Assembly: GCA_934364765.1 (NCBI GenBank)
Contig: CAKRMO010000015.1
Span: 1-11,732, forward strand
Length of the DNA stretch: 11,732 bases
Reading direction: 5' to 3'
Origin: an uncultured Bacteroidaceae bacterium
GTDB lineage: Bacteria; Bacteroidota; Bacteroidia; Bacteroidales; Bacteroidaceae
Shown: piece after piece, positions 2,241-11,732 of the stretch
Layout of the letters: every line of letters starts with the position of its first letter
Position numbering within the stretch: the first letter of the stretch is position 1
The notes under the pieces: generated by a model
Databases searched by the model: none
Told to the model about the DNA's origin: nothing
The model's input: the letters and a program-made list of their open reading frames with translations, nothing else
Program-made: the position numbers and the translations under genes

Positions 2241-2380
2241 TGCCGTGCGGCCTTACCGCCACAACGGCACACTTACAACCAATCTATTAAAAGCTTTTTC
2301 TCACGCCTGTCTCCGCATAGCCCCCCCTCACCCGCAGCCTTCGCCATGCTGCCGTTTCCAGTGGGAAAGTGGCGGAAACT

Positions 2381-2461
2381 ATGTCTGATATAATTTTTCC
2401 TACGTCTGATGTAGTTTTTTCTACATAGGACGTAGTTTTTCTTATGTCCCGCATTGTTTCC
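2381..2461 (+). repeat. Tandem 20/21-bp repeat array A (about four degenerate units)
   Basis: Units begin at 2381, 2401, 2422 and 2442 with lengths 20, 21, 20 and 20. The shared pattern is TAYRTCnGAYGTAG followed by a T-run and CC. The first half of each unit is a hyphenated palindrome (TAYRTC-n-GAYRTA); the last unit is the most decayed. The same repeat occurs at 9284-9366 in the same orientation, with a 20 of 21 match over CTACATAGGACGT-R-GTTTTTC (2421-2441 against 9324-9344). Function unknown. Confidence 0.8.
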
Positions 2462-2740: not shown

Positions 2741-3493
2741 CTACACCAGCTCCAGCACCCTAAGCACAACCAGCAGGGCCTGCGTGGTGGAGGCGTTGAA
2801 CCTGCGGCGGAGGCATCTCACCATATATACAACCTGATGTTCCTTGAGCGACAGGGCGCCGGCAATTTGCGCCGTGCTGTAATTGGCGTAAAGCATGGCG
2901 CACACCTTCTCCTCAACCGGCGCAAGCCTGCAGCTGAACACATTCAGCCTGCCCTCGCCGTCAAGCCGGTAAAATTCGTTTGTGTTCTTATTGTAAATGC
3001 CGCACACCTCGGAGGTGTCGTTAACATAACGCCCCACCATGACTATTGAGCACCAGACACTGTTGGACGCCGTCTTGAACAGCGGGTACTCCTTTATGCA
3101 CACCGGGTACTTCTCCCTGCCGCCGCCGACGGCAATAACCGTGTTGAAGATAATGTTCACATATTTAAGCCCGCCGCAGCAGATTTCGGCATATTTCCCG
3201 GATGTCTGGCGGAGGAAATCCTGGGCGTGCTTCACAAACACTCCCGAAAACCTCACGGAACGCCTCAGCGCGGCCAGCAGCCTGTCGTCGCAGTTGCGGT
3301 ATTCCTTGTTGCGGTATGACATGTAAACAATCCTCCGGCGGCTATAGTCGGCAACAAAAGCCATCCTGTTTGTAGGCATCAGCGAACAGCTTTCAAGGCA
3401 CGCCACCATGCCTTTCAGCCTTTCCCGCTCCTCATCAGGAAGCCTGCCGATGTCGTTGGTTTCGGGAGAAAATATAAAGTCTATGATATTCAC
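2741..3493 (-). CDS. LuxR-type HTH transcriptional regulator (paralogue 1)
   Basis: 250 residues; ATG at 3491-3493, TAG at 2741-2743. Residues about 190-250 form a LuxR/GerE-type four-helix HTH: an LAPVEEKVCAML opening, ANYSTAQIAGALSL as scaffold helix and turn, a recognition helix around HQVVYMVRCLRRRF, and a closing helix ending VLRVLEL. The N-terminal 180 residues resemble the PAS-like sensory region common in Bacteroidales LuxR proteins (NRMAFVADYS at 42-51, then FNTVIAV, PLFK and VWCS), but no ligand can be assigned. No receiver Asp pattern, signal peptide or membrane segment, so it should be a cytoplasmic DNA-binding protein. It is a tandem paralogue of the gene at 3752-4504. Target genes are unknown; the neighbouring secreted-protein gene is an obvious but untested candidate. 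Confidence 0.82.
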   Translation of the reverse strand: MNIIDFIFSPETNDIGRLPDEERERLKGMVACLESCSLMPTNRMAFVADYSRRRIVYMSYRNKEYRNCDDRLLAALRRSVRFSGVFVKHAQDFLRQTSGKYAEICCGGLKYVNIIFNTVIAVGGGREKYPVCIKEYPLFKTASNSVWCSIVMVGRYVNDTSEVCGIYNKNTNEFYRLDGEGRLNVFSCRLAPVEEKVCAMLYANYSTAQIAGALSLKEHQVVYMVRCLRRRFNASTTQALLVVLRVLELV

Positions 3494-3751: not shown

Positions 3752-4504
3752 CTACAAAATCTCGAGCGTACGAAACACAACCATCAACGCCCTTGTGTTG
3801 GTAACATTGAACCGCCGGCGGAACTTTTTCAGGATATTCACAACCTTGTACTCGTCAATGCCGAGCTTTTTCGCTATCTGGGCGTTGGAGTAATTTGCAA
3901 ATATGAAGGAGCACACCAGCTTCTCCATGCCCGTCATCCTGTACAGCCTCGAGGCAAGCCTTCCGCCCTTGTCAACATACCAATACCGCTTGTGCAGCTT
4001 GTTGTATATGCCGCAGCTTTCGGGCAGGTCCTTTACAAAGCGGCTCACAACCGCCATTGAGCACCACACGCGCCCGTCGTCGGTTACAAACAGCGGATGC
4101 TCGGCTATGCAAATGGGATATTTGCTGCCGACGCTCTTTACGGTTACAAGCGTGTTGAATATATAGTCTGTGTTCCGCGCCCCGCCCTTGAACACTTCCC
4201 GCTGCCGGCCCGCCTCTGCGCCCGACAGGGAGGCTGCCATGCTTTTGAAACTTTTCATGAAGCTCACCCTGCTGAGCAGCATTAGCAGTTGCCTGTAGGC
4301 ACATTCGCCACGGAACTCCCTGCACTTGTGCCGCAGAAAGGGTATCTCGCCCCTGCTGTAATCGATCACAAACACAAGCCGGTTTGACACAAAGGGAAAA
4401 TTTCCGATACACGACAGCATCCTTTCCAAATCGCGGTGGCGGGACACACGAAGCTCGTTGAGCGGCTTGGGGAAAACGCTTGTTATATATTCGGCGACAT
4501 TCAT
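3752..4504 (-). CDS. LuxR-type HTH transcriptional regulator (paralogue 2)
   Basis: I place the start at the ATG at 4502-4504 rather than an in-frame ATG at 4561. It gives exactly 250 residues, the length of paralogue 1, the first residues match (MNVAEYI against MNIIDFI), and an AT-rich leader precedes it. Residues about 188-250 are the LuxR-type HTH (FANYSNAQIAKKLGI, then YKVVNILKKFRRRF). The N-terminal part shares NRLVFVIDYS, FNTLVTV, KYPICIAEHPLF, VWCS and CGIYNK with its partner; from residue 111 to the end the two align without gaps. Probably a cytoplasmic DNA-binding regulator with a PAS-like sensory region; the signal and targets cannot be read from sequence. It lies downstream of the large secreted-protein gene on the same strand but is separated from it by a terminator. 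Confidence 0.82.
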   Translation of the reverse strand: MNVAEYITSVFPKPLNELRVSRHRDLERMLSCIGNFPFVSNRLVFVIDYSRGEIPFLRHKCREFRGECAYRQLLMLLSRVSFMKSFKSMAASLSGAEAGRQREVFKGGARNTDYIFNTLVTVKSVGSKYPICIAEHPLFVTDDGRVWCSMAVVSRFVKDLPESCGIYNKLHKRYWYVDKGGRLASRLYRMTGMEKLVCSFIFANYSNAQIAKKLGIDEYKVVNILKKFRRRFNVTNTRALMVVFRTLEIL

Positions 4505-4527
4505 ATACTTCCTTTTGGTTTTTATTA

Positions 4528-4535
4528 CAAAAATA
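4528..4535 (-). promoter_or_regulatory. Candidate Bacteroidota -7 element for LuxR paralogue 2
   Basis: The minus strand reads TATTTTTG, matching TAnnTTTG, about 24 bp before the chosen ATG and downstream of the terminator of the preceding gene. No convincing -33 TTTG at standard spacing. If real, the longer start at 4561 would lie upstream of the transcript, which supports the shorter start. Confidence 0.35.
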
Positions 4536-4620
4536 GCGGTTTCCGCAATTTGCGCCCCCAATGCCTTTTACCAATTTTTGCAATCCCGCAATTTTTCCGC
4601 AAAACACCCAGTATCGGAAA

Positions 4621-4677: not shown

Positions 4678-7600
4678 TTACTTGATGAGGACCTTCTCCT
4701 TGCCGATGATATAGAGACCCTTCCTGAGACCCTTCTTGGCATCGGATGCCTTTACGTTGCGCTTGACGAGCGCACCGTCAACGGTGTAAACGTCAACCTT
4801 GACGCTGAGCTTGCTTACGGCCTCCTTAATCTTGTTGAGGATGCCGCCGTCGAGCGTGCTGATTACCACTTCCGGGTCGCCTTCCAAAGCCTGAATGAGG
4901 TTCGGGTTGATGTAACCGCTGTGCGCGCTTACAGAAACCTTCTTCTCGCCGTCGGTAACCTTGAGTGCATTGCCGCTGAAGTAACCGTAGCCGCCATCAA
5001 CAAGGCTCTTGCCGTTGAATGCGGCAACAAGGCCGTTGACAGAGTCGCCCTTGATGCTGAGGTCGGTCGGGGCGTCAAACATGAGGGTAACCTTGGGCTG
5101 TCCCTCCTCATAGAGAGTAGTGTCGCCTGTTACGAGGATGAACGGCTCGCCGGCTGCGAAGTCCCATTTCTCAACAAGTCCGAGTTCTGTGTCGCTCGGC
5201 TGGCTGTGGATTTGGTACGCATGAACATTTTCGTTCCTGCCGAGTTCTGTAACTGCGAACGGCAATGTAACAATCTTGGCAGTGTTGTTGTCGAACTGCA
5301 TTGCGATTTCGGGGTTCTCCTCTGTGTCGAACTCCTCGAATGTGAACGAAGCACGGCTGTCAAACTCTGCCGTGAGCAAATCGGCACGCACCTGGCGTGC
5401 GTTGTCGCCGAACGATACCAAAGCGCCTTCGCGCCTGCCGCCGAGAGACTGAATCTGGAACTGCTCCTTGCCGATGTATGTAACGCGGAACGGGAACGGA
5501 GTGGTACTGCCGCTGAAGTAGTAGTCGTTGCTTTGGATGTTGGCGTTGCCGAAGTACCAGCCTGTGCGCATATTCTGGATGTAGTATGCGCGCTTGCCAA
5601 GGTTGAGGCTGTCGGGAACGGGAACAAAGCGCCAGATAGCGTCAATGTCGCCCTCGCGCTCCTTGTTCTTTATGTCGTCCATACCCCAGCGCAGCTGGTT
5701 GCCCGCATTGTAAACGCCTTCGTTCTCACCCTTGCCGCTGCCGAGCACATAGAGGGCCGCGCCCTTGACCTCGGCGCGTGCGCCGTAGTAGTTTTCGGGG
5801 GCGGCATCACCCTCGGCTGTTGCGCTGAGTATGTAGTACCACTTGCCCGGCTCAACGGAAACGATGTTGTCGTAAACGTTCTCCATTGCGTCCTCGATGT
5901 TCTTCTTTATTTCGTTGAACTTCGCGGTGCTGGTCTGAAGGCCGGCTGCTGCGTCAATTGCAGCCTGAAGGTCGGTGAGCTTGCTTTCGTCCTTGAGCTG
6001 GCCCATGTATTCGCCAACCACTGCGTTGTCGATAAGCATCTTGGCTTTGTCTATCAGGTTGTCAAGAGCGTTGTGATCCTGATAGAGGGCCGCAACCGCG
6101 TCGATAGCATCCTGAAGGTCCTGTCCGTCGGTGAGAGTTGCGGAGCCGTTGTCAAGCTTGCCCTGAACTTCGGCCGCAAGGTTCATCATCTTGTCGGCAG
6201 CGTCCTTCATGCCTTCAACATAGTAGTACTGCGACTTGGCGTTGTCATACCTGTCCTTGGAGTCGTAAAGCTGGAAGCCGGAGATTGTCCAGTAAGGCAC
6301 ACCGTCGCAAGAGCTGGTGCAGCGGAAACGTATGTAGCGGTAAGGCTGGTCGGGAGTGATGTCCTTGCTGTAGTAAGGCCACTGGCTGTAAACGTTCCTG
6401 TCGGGGAAGTCGTTGAGAGTGGTAATCTCGGTCCAGGAAGCCAAGTCGGAAGTAACGTCTGCGCCGAGTGCGTCGTCGTTAGTGCCGTACACGATAGCCG
6501 TGCGCGGTGTTACGCCCATACGGTGGTTGCCGTTGTAAAGGTCATTGCGGCGGTCAATCCTCACGAGGAACGAAGCCACATCGCTGCGCTTGAGGTCAAT
6601 CTGGAGGTAAGAGGGGTTCTCTGCAAGAGTGCCCCAGTTCGGGTCGGAGTGCCAGTATGTCTGGTCGTTGTCGTCGATAAGCGCACCGAGAAGGTTGTAG
6701 CCGTCCTCGATGAACTCTGCGTTGAACGAATAGTTGTCGTTGCCGGGAGTGATGCCCATCCAAGTGTTGTTGGCGGTAAGCTGTGTGGTGCCGTCATCCT
6801 TTGAGTTAACCTCGGTGATGAGGCCGCCCTCGGTTGCGAGGGTGTAGAGCTTCTTGTTAAGGTCGTTTGCCTTCTTGACGATAGCCTGTATGCGCTCCGC
6901 GCTGTTCAGCAGGTCGTTAATCACGGCAATGCTGCTGCGTATCGGGGCCATTTCGGTTCCGTCAACGGTGAGGTTGTTCACGTGGTCGTCGGCAACAGAG
7001 AGAGCGGCTGCGAGGTCGTCAACAGCTTTCTTCATTTCGGCGTTCTTCGAGTAGAGAGAGCCTTCGGAAGCCGGGATGTCCTCGGGATAGAGCTGAAGCT
7101 CGCTGAGATTCCAGTAAGAATTGCCCGACGAGGTGCCCTTGACATACAGGCGCACATACTGGTAGTTGGCCTTCATGTCGATGAGCGGGGACACGTAGTG
7201 GGCGTTGTGTATGTTGCCGGGGAAGCCCTTTTCAAGAATGGTTATCTCCTTCCACGAAGTTTCGTCCTCGGGGGTGTTGGTGGCCTTCACAACATATTTT
7301 GTCGGTGTGTCGTGCCATGCCGTTCCCGAAACCGCGCCGTCGTTGCGTCCCCAGTGCTCGATTGTGAGCTTCGACACGTCGGTGCGGTTCAGGTCAATCT
7401 GAAGCCACTCGTCCTGATTGAAGAGGTTCATTCCCGTTGTGGAGTGGAAGTGGGTGTCGTGGTCGTTGTCAATCAGCTTGTCTACGCCGTTTGCGGCTGT
7501 CCACGCGCAGTTTGCGCTAATCTGCGAAGCCGCCTTTATGAGACCCGTGGTCGGGGCCTTGATTGTGAGGATGAGCGTGCGCGCCTCGACAAGAGAGTCT

Positions 7601-8991
7601 GCCAGTGCGCTTGCCCTGTCCTTCTTTGCCTGGAGTTCCTTCAGCTCGTCGAGCTTGCTTGCATCGGCGGGAACGAACTTCCACCACGAGATGTTCTCGT
7701 AAACGCTCGCCGGCGAAATCTTGCCGAAGCTGCCCGCGCCGCTGTTGTGCGACAGCGGATGGTAGGGGAAGGGGTTCGCCGTGTTTGCTATGTAGTAGCA
7801 TCCGTTTCCGAGAGGCTCAACCGTCTGGTGTATGGTGTCGGTGTCGTTCATCTTCACATACACGGCTGTAACCCATGCGTCGCCGGGCACGGTGTAAACG
7901 TATTTGTCGTTGCCGCCGTTGCGGAACGAGAAGTTGCCGTCCTCCTGACGTGTTGCATAGAAATAGTAGTAAGGGTTCTGGCTGTCCAGAGTGCCCCATT
8001 TCAGTTCCGCGTCGTCGGCGTTCCACGCCTTGTCAACGCCCTGCTTCTTGAAGAACGAGCTGTCGCCCGCCACGATGAAATACCAGCCGTCGGTGATTGG
8101 GTTCACGCTTGCCGTGATGTCGGCGATAGCCTTGCGCAAATTTGCAATGGCGGCGTTGAGCTCGTCGTCGCCGGCGTTGGGGTTGTCTATCTGGTCAAGG
8201 CAGGAGGCGAAAGTGGTCTGATAGGTGTCGTATGCCGTCTGGCTCACATAGCCTATGCCCTCACCAACCTTGAAGTCGCGGTTGAGGTCGTAGATTGAGT
8301 CAACCACGTTCTGCAGTATCTGCTTCTTGTCTGTAATGGGCACAGCGGGATAGAACTGCAGTTCCGAAAAAGTCCAATAGGCATACGAGGAGCCCGGGGT
8401 GCCTGAAGCCTTGCGCGGGATTAGGCGCAGGTAGCGGTAAGTCTCGGGCAACTCTATGTAGCCGTAGTAAGGCCAGCCTTCGCTGTCGGAAGCGGGGATG
8501 TCTTTGAGCTTCTTCACGAATTTCCACGAGCTTTCCTCGTCAGGGGTGTTGGTTGCGTAAATGTCCAGCTCCACAGGGGTGATGCCATGGCGCACCGTGC
8601 CGTTATAGACATCCTCGCGGCGGTGCATCATAAGCATGAGCTGCGTGAGGTCGTCGCGCATGAGGTCAACCTGAATCCACTCGTCCTGTGTCCTGAGGTC
8701 CATCCCTGTCGGGTCGGAATGCCAGTAGGTGTTCAGGTTGTCGTCAATAAGCGTGCCAAGATGGTTGTCAGCATCGTAGTACGCCTCGTTGTTTTCGGGA
8801 AGATAGTTGTCGTTTCCCTTTTCGGGCTTCCAGGTGCAGTTGCTCGTGAGCTGCGTCTCGCCTGTTGGCGAAACAACGGTGATGAGAGGCGTGCTCTCGT
8901 CAGCCTCATAGTTCTGAGCCTGCGCACCAGAAGAAAAGCCCAGGATGCAAGCCATTACGCACAGCTTGACCCAAAGTAAACATCTCTTCAT
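4678..8991 (-). CDS. Large secreted F5/8 type C (discoidin-like) multidomain protein with T9SS-like C-terminal tail
   Basis: 1437 residues; ATG at 8989-8991, TAA at 4678-4680. Residues 1-26 are a signal peptide (MKRC, hydrophobic core, SGAQAQ). Three F5/8 type C / CBM32-like domains follow at about 35-215, 485-636 and 725-910. Each has a DxLIDxxxxTxxHS core, a WIQVDL- or LQIDL-type strand, a TxYxxATNTP-like strand and a closing YWxxSExQLYP-type motif. Helical FIVAR-like spacers sit at about 220-295, 640-720 and 912-1045. Two beta-trefoil-like modules occur at about 298-445 and 1046-1225 (GWYFI or KWYYI start, WWKFVP or IWRFVP). A beta-rich region (1226-1395) precedes a tail at 1396-1437 (VDVYTVDGALVK, then KKGLRKGLYII) that resembles type IX secretion sorting domains. 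No catalytic domain was seen, so a surface or released glycan-binding or adhesive role is likely; the ligand is unknown. Confidence 0.88.
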   Translation of the reverse strand: MKRCLLWVKLCVMACILGFSSGAQAQNYEADESTPLITVVSPTGETQLTSNCTWKPEKGNDNYLPENNEAYYDADNHLGTLIDDNLNTYWHSDPTGMDLRTQDEWIQVDLMRDDLTQLMLMMHRREDVYNGTVRHGITPVELDIYATNTPDEESSWKFVKKLKDIPASDSEGWPYYGYIELPETYRYLRLIPRKASGTPGSSYAYWTFSELQFYPAVPITDKKQILQNVVDSIYDLNRDFKVGEGIGYVSQTAYDTYQTTFASCLDQIDNPNAGDDELNAAIANLRKAIADITASVNPITDGWYFIVAGDSSFFKKQGVDKAWNADDAELKWGTLDSQNPYYYFYATRQEDGNFSFRNGGNDKYVYTVPGDAWVTAVYVKMNDTDTIHQTVEPLGNGCYYIANTANPFPYHPLSHNSGAGSFGKISPASVYENISWWKFVPADASKLDELKELQAKKDRASALADSLVEARTLILTIKAPTTGLIKAASQISANCAWTAANGVDKLIDNDHDTHFHSTTGMNLFNQDEWLQIDLNRTDVSKLTIEHWGRNDGAVSGTAWHDTPTKYVVKATNTPEDETSWKEITILEKGFPGNIHNAHYVSPLIDMKANYQYVRLYVKGTSSGNSYWNLSELQLYPEDIPASEGSLYSKNAEMKKAVDDLAAALSVADDHVNNLTVDGTEMAPIRSSIAVINDLLNSAERIQAIVKKANDLNKKLYTLATEGGLITEVNSKDDGTTQLTANNTWMGITPGNDNYSFNAEFIEDGYNLLGALIDDNDQTYWHSDPNWGTLAENPSYLQIDLKRSDVASFLVRIDRRNDLYNGNHRMGVTPRTAIVYGTNDDALGADVTSDLASWTEITTLNDFPDRNVYSQWPYYSKDITPDQPYRYIRFRCTSSCDGVPYWTISGFQLYDSKDRYDNAKSQYYYVEGMKDAADKMMNLAAEVQGKLDNGSATLTDGQDLQDAIDAVAALYQDHNALDNLIDKAKMLIDNAVVGEYMGQLKDESKLTDLQAAIDAAAGLQTSTAKFNEIKKNIEDAMENVYDNIVSVEPGKWYYILSATAEGDAAPENYYGARAEVKGAALYVLGSGKGENEGVYNAGNQLRWGMDDIKNKEREGDIDAIWRFVPVPDSLNLGKRAYYIQNMRTGWYFGNANIQSNDYYFSGSTTPFPFRVTYIGKEQFQIQSLGGRREGALVSFGDNARQVRADLLTAEFDSRASFTFEEFDTEENPEIAMQFDNNTAKIVTLPFAVTELGRNENVHAYQIHSQPSDTELGLVEKWDFAAGEPFILVTGDTTLYEEGQPKVTLMFDAPTDLSIKGDSVNGLVAAFNGKSLVDGGYGYFSGNALKVTDGEKKVSVSAHSGYINPNLIQALEGDPEVVISTLDGGILNKIKEAVSKLSVKVDVYTVDGALVKRNVKASDAKKGLRKGLYIIGKEKVLIK

Positions 8992-9104: not shown

Positions 9105-9283
9105 ATAAGCCCCGAAAAATGTGCAATTTTTTAACAATAAACCTTGTGGAAACCGGTGTCAAGGACACAAGCCGTGGAATACGGGCGAAAGAGCGGTAAC
9201 GATTTGATTCGCAGACGCTTGTACCGTTTCTTGGTTTTACGTGTAAGCGTTTGTTTTACAGAGGGTTGCAAGACGCGGAAAAA

Positions 9284-9366
9284 AGGTCTGATGTAGTCTG
9301 GATTATATCAGACATAATTTTTCCTACATAGGACGTGGTTTTTCCTACATCCGATGTAGTTTGGAA
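9284..9366 (+). repeat. Tandem 20/21-bp repeat array B (about four degenerate units)
   Basis: Units begin near 9284 and at 9304, 9325 and 9346, the last three 21 bp long. They share the TAYRTCnGAYGTAG plus T-run/CC pattern with the array at 2381-2461, in the same orientation. The unit at 9346 has a perfect 6+1+6 palindrome (TACATC-C-GATGTA). Relative to array A, one unit is missing between the ATAATTTTTCC unit and the TACATAGGACGT unit, as expected from unit gain or loss. The array lies upstream of the nigD-like gene, and its last unit runs into the candidate promoter there. Confidence 0.8.
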
Positions 9367-9394
9367 AGTGTTTCGGAAGAAAGCAATATGTTTG
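9360..9394 (+). promoter_or_regulatory. Candidate promoter of the nigD-sigma-anti-sigma operon
   Basis: TATGTTTG at 9387-9394 is an exact match to the Bacteroidota -7 element TAnnTTTG. TTTG at 9360-9363 lies 23 bp upstream, slightly longer than the usual spacing of about 19-21. The TTTG is part of the last repeat unit. Predicted leader about 120 nt. A promoter read by the operon's own ECF sigma factor might look different and cannot be identified here. Confidence 0.35.
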
Positions 9395-9518
9395 CGTTTG
9401 GCGCGTTTTATGGTATGGCAGGCGGTTTTGGTGATGCCCGAAAAAAAATCCGCACATTCAGGCAAGATTTCCGCAATGGGGGCATTATACATATGTATCA
9501 ACAACAAAACATGGGAAA

Positions 9519-10193
9519 ATGAAATGCCTGAACTACCTACTGCCGGCGTTGCTGCTTCTGCCTGCGTTCGCGCTGCAATCGTGCGACGACGACGGCGACA
9601 ACTCAAAAAACTACGCCAACGCAACCGTTACGCTGAAAACCAACCCTGACGACAACACGTTCTATATGCAGCTTGACGACTCCACCACCGTGCTGCCGGC
9701 AAACATCAAGGTGTCGCCCGCCGGGAAGAGCGAGGTGAGGGCGCTCGTGAACCTGAAGTTCACGAAAAACAGCGCAGGCCCTTACTCCCGCGAGGCGTTC
9801 GTGAACTGGATTGACACCATAAGGACGAAAGACATGGCGCAAAACCACGGGGACGACAACGCCACGCTCTACGGCGACGACCCTGTGGAAATCGTGAACC
9901 ATTGGGCGACAAACGCCGAGGACGGCTACCTCACGCTGCGCTTCAGGACATACCACAGCGGCAAAGCCAACCACAGGCTTAACCTTGTGAAAGGCGGCAA
10001 CGCCAACGAGGTGGTGCTGTATCACGATGCCCAAGGGGACAATGCAGGGCGCGTGGGCGACGGCATGATAGCCTTCCGCCTTGAGAAGCAGCCCGACAGC
10101 GACGGCACGCCAAGGGAAATGACGCTGAAATGGAAATCGTTCAGCGGACAGGAGAAGAGCATCAAGTTCAAATACATCCCCCGAAAGCAATAA
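9519..10193 (+). CDS. nigD: NigD-like lipoprotein
   Basis: 224 residues; ATG at 9519. Residues 1-21 are a lipoprotein signal peptide with lipobox L19-Q20-S21-C22. The mature protein would begin C-DDDGD, an acidic run like the Bacteroidota lipoprotein export signal, so surface exposure is possible. The rest matches the NigD-like family: N-terminal OB-like part with YANATVTLKT, YMQLDDSTTVLP and EVRALVN (32-78), then the C-terminal beta-sandwich part with VNWIDTIRTK, DPVEIV, EDGYLTLRFRT, GDGMIAFRL and LKWKSFSG (95-211). It appears full length. The family is named from the nigrescin bacteriocin locus of Prevotella, but its biochemical role is unclear. In Bacteroides thetaiotaomicron a NigD protein beside a sigma/anti-sigma pair affects outer-membrane vesicle production. 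The sigma gene starts 27 nt downstream, so the genes are probably cotranscribed. Symbol given by family only. Confidence 0.9.
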   Translation: MKCLNYLLPALLLLPAFALQSCDDDGDNSKNYANATVTLKTNPDDNTFYMQLDDSTTVLPANIKVSPAGKSEVRALVNLKFTKNSAGPYSREAFVNWIDTIRTKDMAQNHGDDNATLYGDDPVEIVNHWATNAEDGYLTLRFRTYHSGKANHRLNLVKGGNANEVVLYHDAQGDNAGRVGDGMIAFRLEKQPDSDGTPREMTLKWKSFSGQEKSIKFKYIPRKQ

Positions 10194-10220
10194 GGCGGCA
10201 CGTTACACGCCATATATATA

Positions 10221-10784
10221 ATGAGTCTGTTCGCAACCGGCAAAGAGCGCGGAATACTCTCGCTTTTCAAAAAAGATGACCCCTCGGCAATGAGCGTCCT
10301 GTATGGCGAATACGCAGGATGGCTCACCGCCGTATGCTCGCGCTACGTGGGCAACGGGGACGACTGCAAGGACGTGCTTCAGGAAACGTTCATAAAGATT
10401 TTCACGCAGATTGGCACATTTGAGTATCGAGGCAAAGGCTCGCTCAAGGCATGGGCGGGGCGCATAGCCGTGAACGAGGCGTTGCAGACGCTGCGGCGCA
10501 AGGCGGCAACGCCGGTTGAGAACGCCGAAACCCTGCCCGACCTGCCCGATGAGAAACCCGATGTGGAAAGCCTTTCGGCACAGGAGATAGCAGACATGAT
10601 AAAAAAACTTCCGCAAGGCTACCGCACGGTGTTCAACCTCTACGCCGTCGAGGGCAGAAGCCACAAGGAGATAGCCGCAACGCTCGGCATAAGGCCCGAC
10701 ACGTCGGCATCGCAATTCCACAAGGCAAAGAACATGCTCGCCAAGATGATTAACGACTACAAAAACAAAAAGGAGCTGCAATGA
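10221..10784 (+). CDS. ECF-type RNA polymerase sigma factor
   Basis: 187 residues; ATG at 10221 after an AT-rich leader (ATATATATA), TGA at 10782-10784. Region 2 spans about 20-92 (DDCKDVLQETFIKIF, then GSLKAWAGRIAVNEALQTLRR, the -10 and core-RNAP binding part). A short acidic linker covers 93-125. Region 4 spans about 126-178 (LPQGYRTVFNLYAVEGRSHKEIAATLGI as the -35-binding HTH start, with SASQFHKAKNML as recognition helix). There is no region 1.1 or 3, as expected for ECF factors. It directs RNA polymerase to a dedicated promoter set, probably including its own operon. The stop codon overlaps the next start (ATGA), which suggests coupled translation with its anti-sigma partner. In Bacteroides the sigma factor in this position pairs with a dual membrane-spanning anti-sigma protein. 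Confidence 0.93.
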   Translation: MSLFATGKERGILSLFKKDDPSAMSVLYGEYAGWLTAVCSRYVGNGDDCKDVLQETFIKIFTQIGTFEYRGKGSLKAWAGRIAVNEALQTLRRKAATPVENAETLPDLPDEKPDVESLSAQEIADMIKKLPQGYRTVFNLYAVEGRSHKEIAATLGIRPDTSASQFHKAKNMLAKMINDYKNKKELQ

Positions 10785-11732
10785 GAGACGAATGGACAAA
10801 ACGGCTGCAAGCGCGCCTTGAAAACCATGAGGAAACGCCTCCGCAGGGACTGTTTGCCGGCATACAGAAAGAGATGTCGCGGCGCGGCGCAGCCCCTGCC
10901 GCCAAAAAGCGCAGGAACGCCGCCGTGTGGCTGTGGACTGTGCCGGCAGCGGCGGCGGTTGTGGCCGTGGGGCTGTTTCTTGCCAACGCGGTGGACAAGG
11001 CTGTAATCGCAACACTGCCCGCAACCGGCAAGATGCCGCCCGTTGCAAATACAAGCACAAAGGAAAGCGCGGAAACGCCGGCGCACACCCTTTTGGCAAA
11101 AGCGGAAACGCCGCGCAGGAAACGCATCGTCCCGCAGGCTGCCGCCACAACTGGGACATACGCAACCGAAGCCGCAGAGGCTGCAACGCAGAGCGAACCC
11201 GAAACGATGAAGAACGAGGTGAAGAGCATGAGGGGCGCGAAAAAAAACGCGACGGCAGCGGGTGTTGCACGCTCATTCCAAAGCGGCGCAAGTGCCGCAT
11301 TGCACAAAAACGGCGGCACGCGCATAAGCCTCGGCGCATACTACGGCGGGACGGCGGGCAGCACAAACAGGGCGGACGGCGTTATGCTGACGGCGGGAAA
11401 GCCCTTCGGCGAATGCCCCAAGGAAATGGAGGACAACGAAAACGCCACGCTCACCGCCACATCGCGCACGCTGCACACCAAAGCCAGCCACAGCCAGCCC
11501 ATAAGGGCGGGCGTGTCGGCAAAACTCCACTTGGGCGAACGCTGGGGCGTGGAAACGGGAGTGGAATACAGCTACCTGTCATCGCAGTTCGACTATGACA
11601 ACGGCAGCACCGCAGTAAGCACCGAAAGGCAGCACCTGCACTACATCGGAATACCCATAAAGGCAAGCTATTCGCTCGTCAAAACAAAAAAACTCAACAT
11701 ATACGCCTCCGCAGGGGGCGCGGTGGAAAAAC
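10781..11732 (+). CDS. Dual membrane-spanning anti-sigma factor (Dma-type) with outer-membrane beta-barrel, 3' truncated
   Basis: Open from the ATG at 10781 to the window edge (317 residues seen, no stop). It overlaps the sigma gene by 4 bp. Residues 1-45 are a charged helical segment (MRDEWTKRLQARLEN, then PPQGLFAGIQKEM) typical of the cytoplasmic sigma-binding end in these Bacteroidota proteins. A basic KKRR precedes one hydrophobic helix at about 47-70 (VWLWTVPAAAAVVAVGLF), the inner-membrane anchor. Residues about 71-178 are Ala/Thr/Glu/Lys-rich and low complexity, a probable disordered periplasmic linker. From about 179 amphipathic strands begin (RISLGAYYGG, then WGVETGVEYSYLSSQF, HYIGIPIKASY, LNIYASAGG), a PorT/OMP beta-barrel signature. 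The layout matches the Dma family, in which the barrel sits in the outer membrane and the N-terminus holds the sigma factor in the cytoplasm. The missing part should hold the remaining strands. Confidence 0.85.
   Translation, partial: MRDEWTKRLQARLENHEETPPQGLFAGIQKEMSRRGAAPAAKKRRNAAVWLWTVPAAAAVVAVGLFLANAVDKAVIATLPATGKMPPVANTSTKESAETPAHTLLAKAETPRRKRIVPQAAATTGTYATEAAEAATQSEPETMKNEVKSMRGAKKNATAAGVARSFQSGASAALHKNGGTRISLGAYYGGTAGSTNRADGVMLTAGKPFGECPKEMEDNENATLTATSRTLHTKASHSQPIRAGVSAKLHLGERWGVETGVEYSYLSSQFDYDNGSTAVSTERQHLHYIGIPIKASYSLVKTKKLNIYASAGGAVEK

What the first reader, a model, noticed from the sequence alone, without database searches (positions are those of the whole stretch)
9519..11732. 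NigD / ECF sigma / dual membrane-spanning anti-sigma operon: probable vesicle-control switch
Seen: three same-strand genes with a 27-nt gap and a 4-bp ATGA overlap, encoding a NigD-like lipoprotein, an ECF sigma factor and a protein with an anti-sigma-like N-terminus, one TM helix, a linker and a beta-barrel. Known: in Bacteroides thetaiotaomicron the Dma family of anti-sigma factors controls its sigma factor and a NigD protein, and loss of Dma1 causes excess outer-membrane vesicles. Inference: this locus is a relative in another Bacteroidales lineage. Here nigD comes first in the operon, so the sigma factor may drive nigD together with its own synthesis.
Basis: partly seen in the sequence, partly recalled or inferred. 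Interest (0 to 1): 0.7.

Follow-up and report, generated by a model that had tools for sequence, protein, structure and literature searches.

The report
Self-regulated outer-membrane stress operon
Three neighbouring genes form a known kind of bacterial alarm circuit in which a protein spanning both cell membranes is thought to hold back a gene switch that turns on a surface lipoprotein; it is a new member of a described family, and a conserved start-signal-like sequence in front of it suggests that the circuit switches itself on.

Summary
In detail: nigD (9519-10193), ECF sigma (10221-10784), Dma-type anti-sigma (10781 to the end). The last is cut by the window edge, but a 96% identical homologue is modelled with a full eight-strand OmpA-like barrel.

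It belongs to the EcfO-Reo / Das1-Dma1 (Dma) family: its sigma lies in the Dma-associated clade (99% support) apart from 20 other sigmas; its lipoprotein passes the NigD1/NigD2 cut-off (192.6 bits against 60).

NigD linkage is not new: BT_4719 is numbered next to BT_4720/21, and a nigD of the P. vulgatus EcfO regulon next to ecfO-reo. The window's order occurs in 45 of 80 loci.

A conserved promoter-like element, TGCAAGRTTT-N10/11-GGATTTAW, precedes most such units; the window's copy (9461-9489) is its best site. In Bacteroides a variant precedes sigma and lipoprotein genes. Four of the nearest relatives lack it at the usual place.

Autoregulation is likely (0.75); vesicle control is borrowed from B. 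thetaiotaomicron, untested here (0.4). Known kind, modest interest.

The parts
9461..9470 (+). -35-like half of the predicted sigma promoter (GGCAAGATTT; family consensus TGCAAGRTTT)
   Evidence: weight matrix trained on 44 nigD upstream regions without the window; best-scoring place in the whole window on both strands
9481..9489 (+). -10-like half (GGCATTATA; family consensus GGATTTAWW), 10-nt spacer after the -35-like half
   Evidence: the GCA of the element starts 57 nt before the nigD start; 29 of 45 co-directional loci (window included) have it at 53-60 nt
9387..9394 (+). possible basal promoter: a match to the housekeeping sigma-ABfr -7 box TAnnTTTG (TATGTTTG)
   Evidence: pattern match only; consensus quoted in PMC7366714
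9519..10193 (+). nigD: NigD1/NigD2-family lipoprotein, 224 aa; lipobox LQSC, Cys22
   Evidence: Pfam NigD_N and NigD_C; NCBIfam NF051862, 192.6 bits, cut-off 60; lipobox
10221..10784 (+). ECF sigma factor, 187 aa (regions 2 and 4), of the Dma-associated clade
   Evidence: Pfam; tree
10781..11732 (+). Dma-type anti-sigma gene, cut by the window end (317 of about 405 codons)
   Evidence: ATGA overlap with sigma; homologue P0001 96% identical; alignment A1
10781..10900 (+). presumed cytoplasmic sigma-binding segment (residues 1-40; two helices modelled at 3-14 and 24-34)
   Evidence: model of P0001 (pLDDT about 50 here, low confidence); weak similarity to an anti-sigma model, 19.9 bits, below its cut-off of 100
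10925..10981 (+). inner-membrane helix (residues 49-67)
   Evidence: hydropathy maximum 2.09
10982..11320 (+). periplasmic tether (residues 68-180, about 113 aa, predicted disordered)
   Evidence: model of P0001: pLDDT under 50 from 38 to 178
11321..11732 (+). outer-membrane beta-barrel, first part (residue 181 on; the rest lies beyond the window)
   Evidence: Pfam OMP_b-brl_2; eight long strands, 181-402, in P0001; best PDB match OmpA

Best explanation
This is a one-operon outer-membrane stress circuit of the Dma family (EcfO-Reo / Das1-Dma1 type) in an unnamed member of the Bacteroidales whose sigma is closest to loci of Prevotella and relatives. The anti-sigma protein is a single chain: an N-terminal cytoplasmic segment that holds the ECF sigma factor, one inner-membrane helix, a disordered periplasmic tether of about 113 residues, and an eight-strand OmpA-like barrel in the outer membrane (anatomy from sequence and from a model of a 96% identical protein; sigma binding inferred from the family). 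When the outer membrane is damaged or the barrel is not properly assembled, the chain lets the sigma go (inferred; EcfO-Reo is induced by two antibacterial toxins, one of which inhibits BamA). The freed sigma recognises the element at 9461-9489 (TGCAAGRTTT-N10/11-GGATTTAW type; inferred from conservation) and transcribes nigD, its own gene and the gene of its inhibitor together. That gives a burst of the lipoprotein NigD plus positive feedback, which the newly made anti-sigma then shuts off (inferred). By analogy NigD changes the cell surface, either by more vesicles (B. thetaiotaomicron NigD1) or as part of a response that protects against envelope-attacking toxins (P. vulgatus EcfO regulon); which of the two holds here is unknown.
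For: Family: domains, NigD1/NigD2 family match, full barrel in P0001, sigma inside the Dma-associated clade. In two reference genomes, 0 of 26 sigma loci without a Dma-type anti-sigma have nigD nearby. Promoter: leave-one-out, 42 of 44 nigD upstream regions exceed the 99% point of shuffles; the window copy scores 17.8 bits, reached by 2 of 880 shuffled regions, and is the top site of the window. The element follows the first gene of the unit: before nigD in 42 of 45 co-directional loci, before sigma inside those same operons in only 4 of 45, and on both sides in 10 of 10 divergent loci. Loci fetched later, repeats removed: sigma side 28 of 32. Sigma genes of other Dma classes lack it: 0 of 9, 0 of 3, and 0 of 8 in a Prevotella clade without nigD. 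Genome-wide, the Bacteroides form gives 30 sites against 1 control site in 8 genomes, before the sigma gene (6 sites) and genes that look like lipoprotein genes by eye (14 sites). Literature: P. vulgatus NigD needs EcfO and appears when reo is lost; the regulon partly protects against toxins; nigD1 rises in a dma1 mutant and is required for its extra vesicles.
Against: Of the five co-directional loci fetched later that could be scored, three match the loose pattern, but two of those (L118, L120) lie 113 nt upstream instead of about 55 and are probably chance. So four of the nearest relatives (L116, L118, L119, L120) seem to drive nigD differently; L007, in the same small group, also failed. 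On the nigD side of divergent loci fetched later only 10 of 22 match. Among loci of the first set without a nigD only 14 of 25 have it before sigma. The window copy departs from consensus at its first base and in the -10 half. A housekeeping-like box also lies upstream at 9387. The N-terminal anti-sigma segment is modelled with low confidence. Release on outer-membrane damage, vesiculation and transcription as one unit were not tested.
Confidence: 0.75

Rival explanations
1. The operon belongs to the family but is driven mainly by the housekeeping sigma; the ECF sigma acts on other promoters, so nigD is carried along and is not an output of the switch.
For: The close co-directional relatives L116, L118, L119 and L120 lack the element at the usual position; the window has a TATGTTTG box at 9387.
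Against: The window does carry the element, at the usual distance from the start and as its best site; the element tracks the first gene of the unit across the loci examined; in P. vulgatus nigD expression depends on EcfO.
Confidence: 0.15
2. NigD is a bacteriocin immunity lipoprotein (as was suggested for the nigrescin locus), and the circuit is mainly a toxin-defence response; vesicles are a side effect.
For: Release of EcfO partly protects P. vulgatus against BcpT and BSAP-3, three nigD genes are in that response, and NigD was suggested to be the immunity protein of nigrescin.
Against: No bacteriocin family among the eight window proteins scanned; NigD1 is required for extra vesicles in the dma1 mutant; the P. 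vulgatus paper ties protection against BSAP-3 to longer O-antigen and leaves the cause of protection against BcpT open.
Confidence: 0.25
3. The operon is a nutrient (glycan) switch like the FecR-type sigma/anti-sigma pairs of polysaccharide loci or like Dma2.
For: Dma2 changes the expression of host-glycan loci; a large gene with F5/8-type-C domains lies on the other strand upstream.
Against: No FecR or TonB-dependent receptor domain among the eight window proteins scanned; the dma2 operon holds other genes instead of nigD.
Confidence: 0.05
4. The anti-sigma gene is broken or truncated, so the locus is decaying.
For: Only that the window ends inside the gene.
Against: Open frame to the last base; a 96% identical, full-length relative exists.
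Confidence: 0.02

Closest known systems
EcfO-Reo of Phocaeicola vulgatus and Bacteroides fragilis
   Same: ECF sigma gene followed by an anti-sigma gene whose product spans from cytoplasm to outer membrane with a C-terminal barrel; nigD genes in the regulon, one numbered next to the pair
   Different: in the named Bacteroides and Phocaeicola relatives where a nigD was found beside the pair it is divergent and the element reads TGCAGTA; in the window all three genes are co-directional and the element reads GGCAAGATTT
Das1-Dma1 of Bacteroides thetaiotaomicron (BT_4720/BT_4721, the numbers being recalled) with NigD1 BT_4005 and NigD2 BT_4719
   Same: Dma-type anatomy; NigD1/NigD2-family lipoprotein; NigD2 carries the neighbouring locus number
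   Different: vesicle phenotype reported in B. thetaiotaomicron and not tested here; the dma1 paper itself was not held
Das2-Dma2 (BT_1559/BT_1558)
   Same: ECF21 sigma plus Dma anti-sigma; extra vesicles when the anti-sigma is lost
   Different: neighbouring co-regulated genes are DUF4943 and DUF4858 genes and BT_1555, not nigD; nigD1 not raised
Dma3 type: sigma and anti-sigma in one protein
   Same: same domains in one chain; relatives L086, L125, L126 and L201
   Different: the window has separate sigma and anti-sigma genes; the three fusions scored lack the element upstream (0 of 3)
OmpA transmembrane domain (PDB 1bxw)
   Same: eight-strand outer-membrane barrel fold (E 2.5e-8, TM-score 0.56 by target length)
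   Different: a likeness of fold, 17% identity; OmpA has no sigma-binding part (own knowledge)

Membership tests
Dma (dual membrane-spanning anti-sigma) family | N-terminal sigma-binding domain, one membrane helix, long disordered tether, C-terminal barrel in one chain (definition read in PMC13088901) | tested here: met
   the N-terminal part is low-confidence and the barrel end was seen in P0001, not in the window
Dma (dual membrane-spanning anti-sigma) family | gene next to a sigma gene of the ECF21 type | tested here: met
   adjacent with ATGA overlap; sigma in the clade of Dma-associated sigmas, 99% support against 20 other sigmas. The ECF21 label itself comes from the paper; no ECF21 model was at hand
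Dma (dual membrane-spanning anti-sigma) family | anti-sigma binds and inhibits its sigma | not testable with these tools
   natural sigma/anti-sigma fusions in relatives are indirect support only
NigD1/NigD2 lipoprotein family (NCBIfam NF051862) | score above the curated cut-off | tested here: met
   192.6 bits against 60
NigD1/NigD2 lipoprotein family (NCBIfam NF051862) | lipoprotein signal with Cys after a lipobox | tested here: met
   LQSC, Cys22
EcfO-Reo type circuit | nigD is transcribed by the cognate sigma | tested here: inconclusive
   conserved element upstream; no expression data; four close relatives lack it at the usual place
EcfO-Reo type circuit | response to outer-membrane stress | not testable with these tools
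   proposed for P. vulgatus from induction by toxins
vesicle-control switch (Dma1-NigD1) | loss of the anti-sigma raises vesicle yield | not testable with these tools
   reported for B. thetaiotaomicron

The most novel reading that the evidence does not exclude
The anti-sigma barrel may itself be the sensor, as a client of the outer-membrane assembly machine. If it is not assembled, or is pulled out, the chain releases sigma, so the protein reports on its own insertion. Outside Bacteroides this circuit may be a minimal one-promoter, one-operon response whose main target is its own nigD. In Bacteroides the same promoter type (TGCAGTATTT form) then spread to a set of lipoprotein genes. Support: EcfO-Reo was reported as most induced by BcpT and by Bd-A, and bacteroidetocin A inhibits BamA. 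A strict pattern hit only the nigD operon in the three of 12 genomes where it matched at all, the other nine having no match even at their own operon. Against or neutral: a looser pattern gave one site in each of 5 of 7 Prevotella- and Muribaculaceae-side genomes (and one control site); of these five sites one is the own nigD operon, one precedes another lipoprotein gene and three have no sensible target.
Probability: 0.25. Interest if true: 0.65.

Novelty: new member of a known kind. Interest (0 to 1): 0.35.

Why it matters
Three nigD genes rank among the 30 most highly transcribed genes of P. vulgatus in monocolonised mice, and what NigD proteins do is not described. The conserved element and the simple three-gene operon give a testable wiring for the circuit outside Bacteroides: one promoter, one lipoprotein, one sigma and one sensor chain. 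The element also lets target genes be predicted from sequence in many gut species, and it separates this class of Dma systems from the others examined, which lack it.

Tried and rejected
Nothing was found, or little was gained, from the following. A first genome scan with the window's own anti-sigma found no relative; an alignment was needed. No convincing PDB relative of the anti-sigma by sequence (one match at E 0.99). No Rfam family in the window at gathering scores. Sigma-70 promoter and terminator scans were at chance level. I looked for sigma residues that change together with the element type (TGCAAGR against TGCAGTA): six columns separate the groups, at window sigma residues 24-83, outside region 4, and the groups are also largely clades, so I draw no conclusion. 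I considered the co-directional order as a novelty and rejected it (45 of 80 loci). I considered a FecR-type nutrient switch and rejected it. I considered a broken anti-sigma gene and rejected it. The linker-length survey gave an impossible value (-35) from a mis-placed helix; I use only P0001's own figures. Passages of PMC12596196 only mention Dma1 and EcfO in passing; the ECF21 matches in PMC8999054 were longer group numbers such as ECF217 and ECF216.

Caveats on counts. The 80 loci are 79 kept of 255 confirmed matches, plus the window, so they are the best-matching ones and not a random sample. The 25 counted as without nigD include two whose contigs begin within about 500 nt upstream (L003, L016) and L072, which has two overlapping nigD fragments but no start called. 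In two of the 45 co-directional loci the nigD lies 662 and 766 nt upstream. The loose regular expression was written after seeing the sequences. The weight matrix was trained without the window, but the same regions supplied its starting consensus. Five later loci repeat loci of the first set; L080-L083 were never counted, and L097 was still counted (29 of 33; 11 of 23) and taken out (28 of 32; 10 of 22). For the tree I left out L080-L083, every second one of L087-L112 and exact duplicates, cut three fusion proteins to their first 200 residues, and of 26 sigma hits in two genomes left out four Dma-type ones and two of RpoD size. Controls for nigD linkage come from two genomes only.
Full report
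1. What is there. The coordinates are right. nigD runs 9519-10193, the sigma gene 10221-10784 after a 27-nt gap, and the anti-sigma gene starts at 10781 inside the ATGA of the sigma stop and runs off the window. Pfam finds both NigD domains, sigma regions 2 and 4, and an outer-membrane barrel domain, each over its cut-off. The lipoprotein has a lipobox with Cys22; the third protein has a strong hydrophobic stretch at residues 49-67.

2. The cut gene is completed by its relatives. A protein search gave 59 homologues (of the 7996 candidates scored), the first 96% identical over the whole query and 405 aa long. The model of that protein (30 sequences; mean pLDDT 59; the barrel strands mostly 72-94, the rest low) shows two helices near the N-terminus, a disordered stretch 38-178 and eight long strands between 181 and 402. 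OmpA's membrane domain is the best PDB match by fold (E 2.5e-8). By sequence, no PDB entry matches the anti-sigma family convincingly. For NigD there are solved relatives, best 3k0y (E 1.9e-21); 3qwn (E 0.0046) is named nigD-like.

3. Which family. NCBI's family model for NigD1/NigD2, named after BT4005 and BT4719, takes the window protein at 192.6 bits against a cut-off of 60; 6 of 6 NigD proteins from other loci also pass. A tree of 138 sigma proteins puts the 118 Dma-associated ones (window included) together with 99% support against 20 other sigmas of two genomes. The window groups with seven co-directional nigD loci of Prevotella and relatives at 87%, and at 98% with a wider set of 25 rows (short search, several long branches among the other sigmas). 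Two further classes were seen in Bacteroides genomes: a shorter anti-sigma (346-370 aa) with its own sigma and no nigD found in the stretch held, and fusions of sigma and anti-sigma in one chain, as described for Dma3.

4. Gene order is not special. Of 80 loci (79 plus the window) nigD lies co-directionally upstream of sigma in 45, divergently in 10, and was not found in 25 (caveats in Tried and rejected). The sigma/anti-sigma overlap of 4 nt occurs in 37 of 80. In the Bacteroides and Phocaeicola loci where a nigD was found it is divergent. Near other sigma genes of two genomes nigD was found in 0 of 26 loci (30 loci, of which four are Dma-type).

5. The promoter-like element. Reading the upstream regions side by side showed TGCAAGATTT, then 10 or 11 bases, then GGATTTAT, 53-60 bases before the nigD start in 29 of 45 loci. 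A weight matrix trained on 44 regions without the window recovered 42 of 44 in leave-one-out above the 99% point of shuffled regions; L007 and L038 failed. The window's copy at 9461-9489 scores 17.8 and is the best site of the window on both strands; 2 of 880 shuffled regions reach it. Position is informative: in co-directional loci the element stands before nigD in 42 of 45 and before sigma in 4 of 45; in divergent loci it stands on both sides in 10 of 10; in loci where no nigD was found it stands before sigma in 14 of 25 (loose pattern, shuffles 0.1-0.7 on average). In loci fetched later, repeats removed, the sigma side has it in 28 of 32 and the divergent nigD side in only 10 of 22. It is absent before the sigmas of the short class (0 of 9), the fusions (0 of 3) and a Prevotella clade without nigD (0 of 8). 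Results against: among the window's nearest relatives only L117 has it at the usual place before nigD (as GGCAAGATTT, the window's form); L116 and L119 have none, L118 and L120 only a loose match at 113 nt, and L121 is cut before it.

6. Predicted targets. In eight Bacteroides-side genomes the form TGCAGTATTN12-14ATTTA occurs 30 times against 1 for the reversed control pattern; one of the eight, that of P. coprocola, has none. By a simple rule (first ATG frame of 60 or more codons within 400 nt) the next gene is the sigma itself at 6 sites, a protein that looks like a lipoprotein by eye at 14, something else or distant at 4, and nothing at 6. Ten downstream proteins were scanned, one of them from the separate search: three have DUF4840, one is a serpin with a lipoprotein-like start, three resemble NigD1/NigD2 weakly and below the cut-off, and the other three match nothing. 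In 12 other genomes a strict pattern gave three sites, each before its own nigD operon; in the remaining nine it matched nothing, not even their own operons, so this does not prove a one-operon regulon.

7. What is already in print. PMC13088901 (abstract, introduction, two result sections and passages read) describes Dma1-3, their four-part anatomy, ECF21 sigma partners, and that nigD1 is raised and required in the dma1 mutant but not raised in dma2. PMC13114119 (abstract, one section and passages) and PMC9308784 (passages) describe EcfO-Reo in P. vulgatus: a sensor chain through all compartments, three nigD genes in the regulon, the one NigD tested made only when reo is lost or under stress, induction by two antibacterial toxins, one of which inhibits BamA. 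PMC10861873 (passages) names BT_4720/BT_4721 as a likely sigma/anti-sigma pair in one operon; that BT_4721 is Dma1 is my recollection. PMC7366714 (passages) says that the EcfO recognition sequence of B. fragilis has been identified, citing a 2013 paper; that paper and the dma1 paper were not held, so I cannot say whether that motif equals the Bacteroides form seen here, and I claim no novelty for it. I made no text search for the letters of either form; the searches on ECF21 and EcfO promoters or regulons and the passages read showed me no TGCAAGRTTT motif, which is weak evidence that it is unpublished.

8. How it most likely works. Shown: gene order, domain anatomy, family membership, conserved element. 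Inferred: sigma binding, release on outer-membrane damage or mis-assembly, transcription of nigD-sigma-anti-sigma as one unit from the element, shut-off by new anti-sigma. Borrowed: the effect of NigD on vesicles or the part of the regulon in toxin protection. I give about 0.95 to Dma membership, about 0.75 to autoregulation by this element and about 0.4 to vesicle control in this organism (my estimates).

9. Verdict. New member of a known kind, interest 0.35.

Noticed in passing
window 2367-2449 and 9270-9373: Two intergenic copies of a repeat with a 21-base period, 6.9 kb apart; the second lies upstream of the nigD operon and includes a 12-pair stem-loop followed by T-rich sequence at 9286-9313.
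   Followed up: no
window 2741-3493 (-) and 3752-4561 (-): Two neighbouring genes on the minus strand encode paralogues (37% identical) with a weak C-terminal LuxR-type helix-turn-helix, below Pfam's cut-off, and no convincing Pfam domain in the N-terminal part.
   Followed up: partly
window 4678-8991 (-): A 1437-aa protein with F5/8 type C domains, probably a surface or secreted protein.
   Followed up: no
L086, L125, L126, L201: Natural fusions of an ECF sigma, an anti-sigma segment and a barrel in one open frame of about 550-600 aa, as described for Dma3; two of them (L125, L126) lie in one Bacteroides-genus genome (G005).
   Followed up: partly
L085, L127-L132, L134, L135: A second, shorter Dma-type pair in Bacteroides-genus genomes, with no nigD found in the stretch held and without the promoter-like element; its sigmas form a clade with 100% support.
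   Followed up: partly
L141 955-1521 and L144 6665-7285: In two relatives of the window a gene for a lipoprotein-like protein with internal repeats stands upstream of nigD on the same strand; in the window the next long frame upstream is the minus-strand gene ending at 8991.
   Followed up: no
G025:C1:6415738-6415938: Another sigma gene lies just downstream of the anti-sigma gene in a Bacteroides-genus genome.
   Followed up: no
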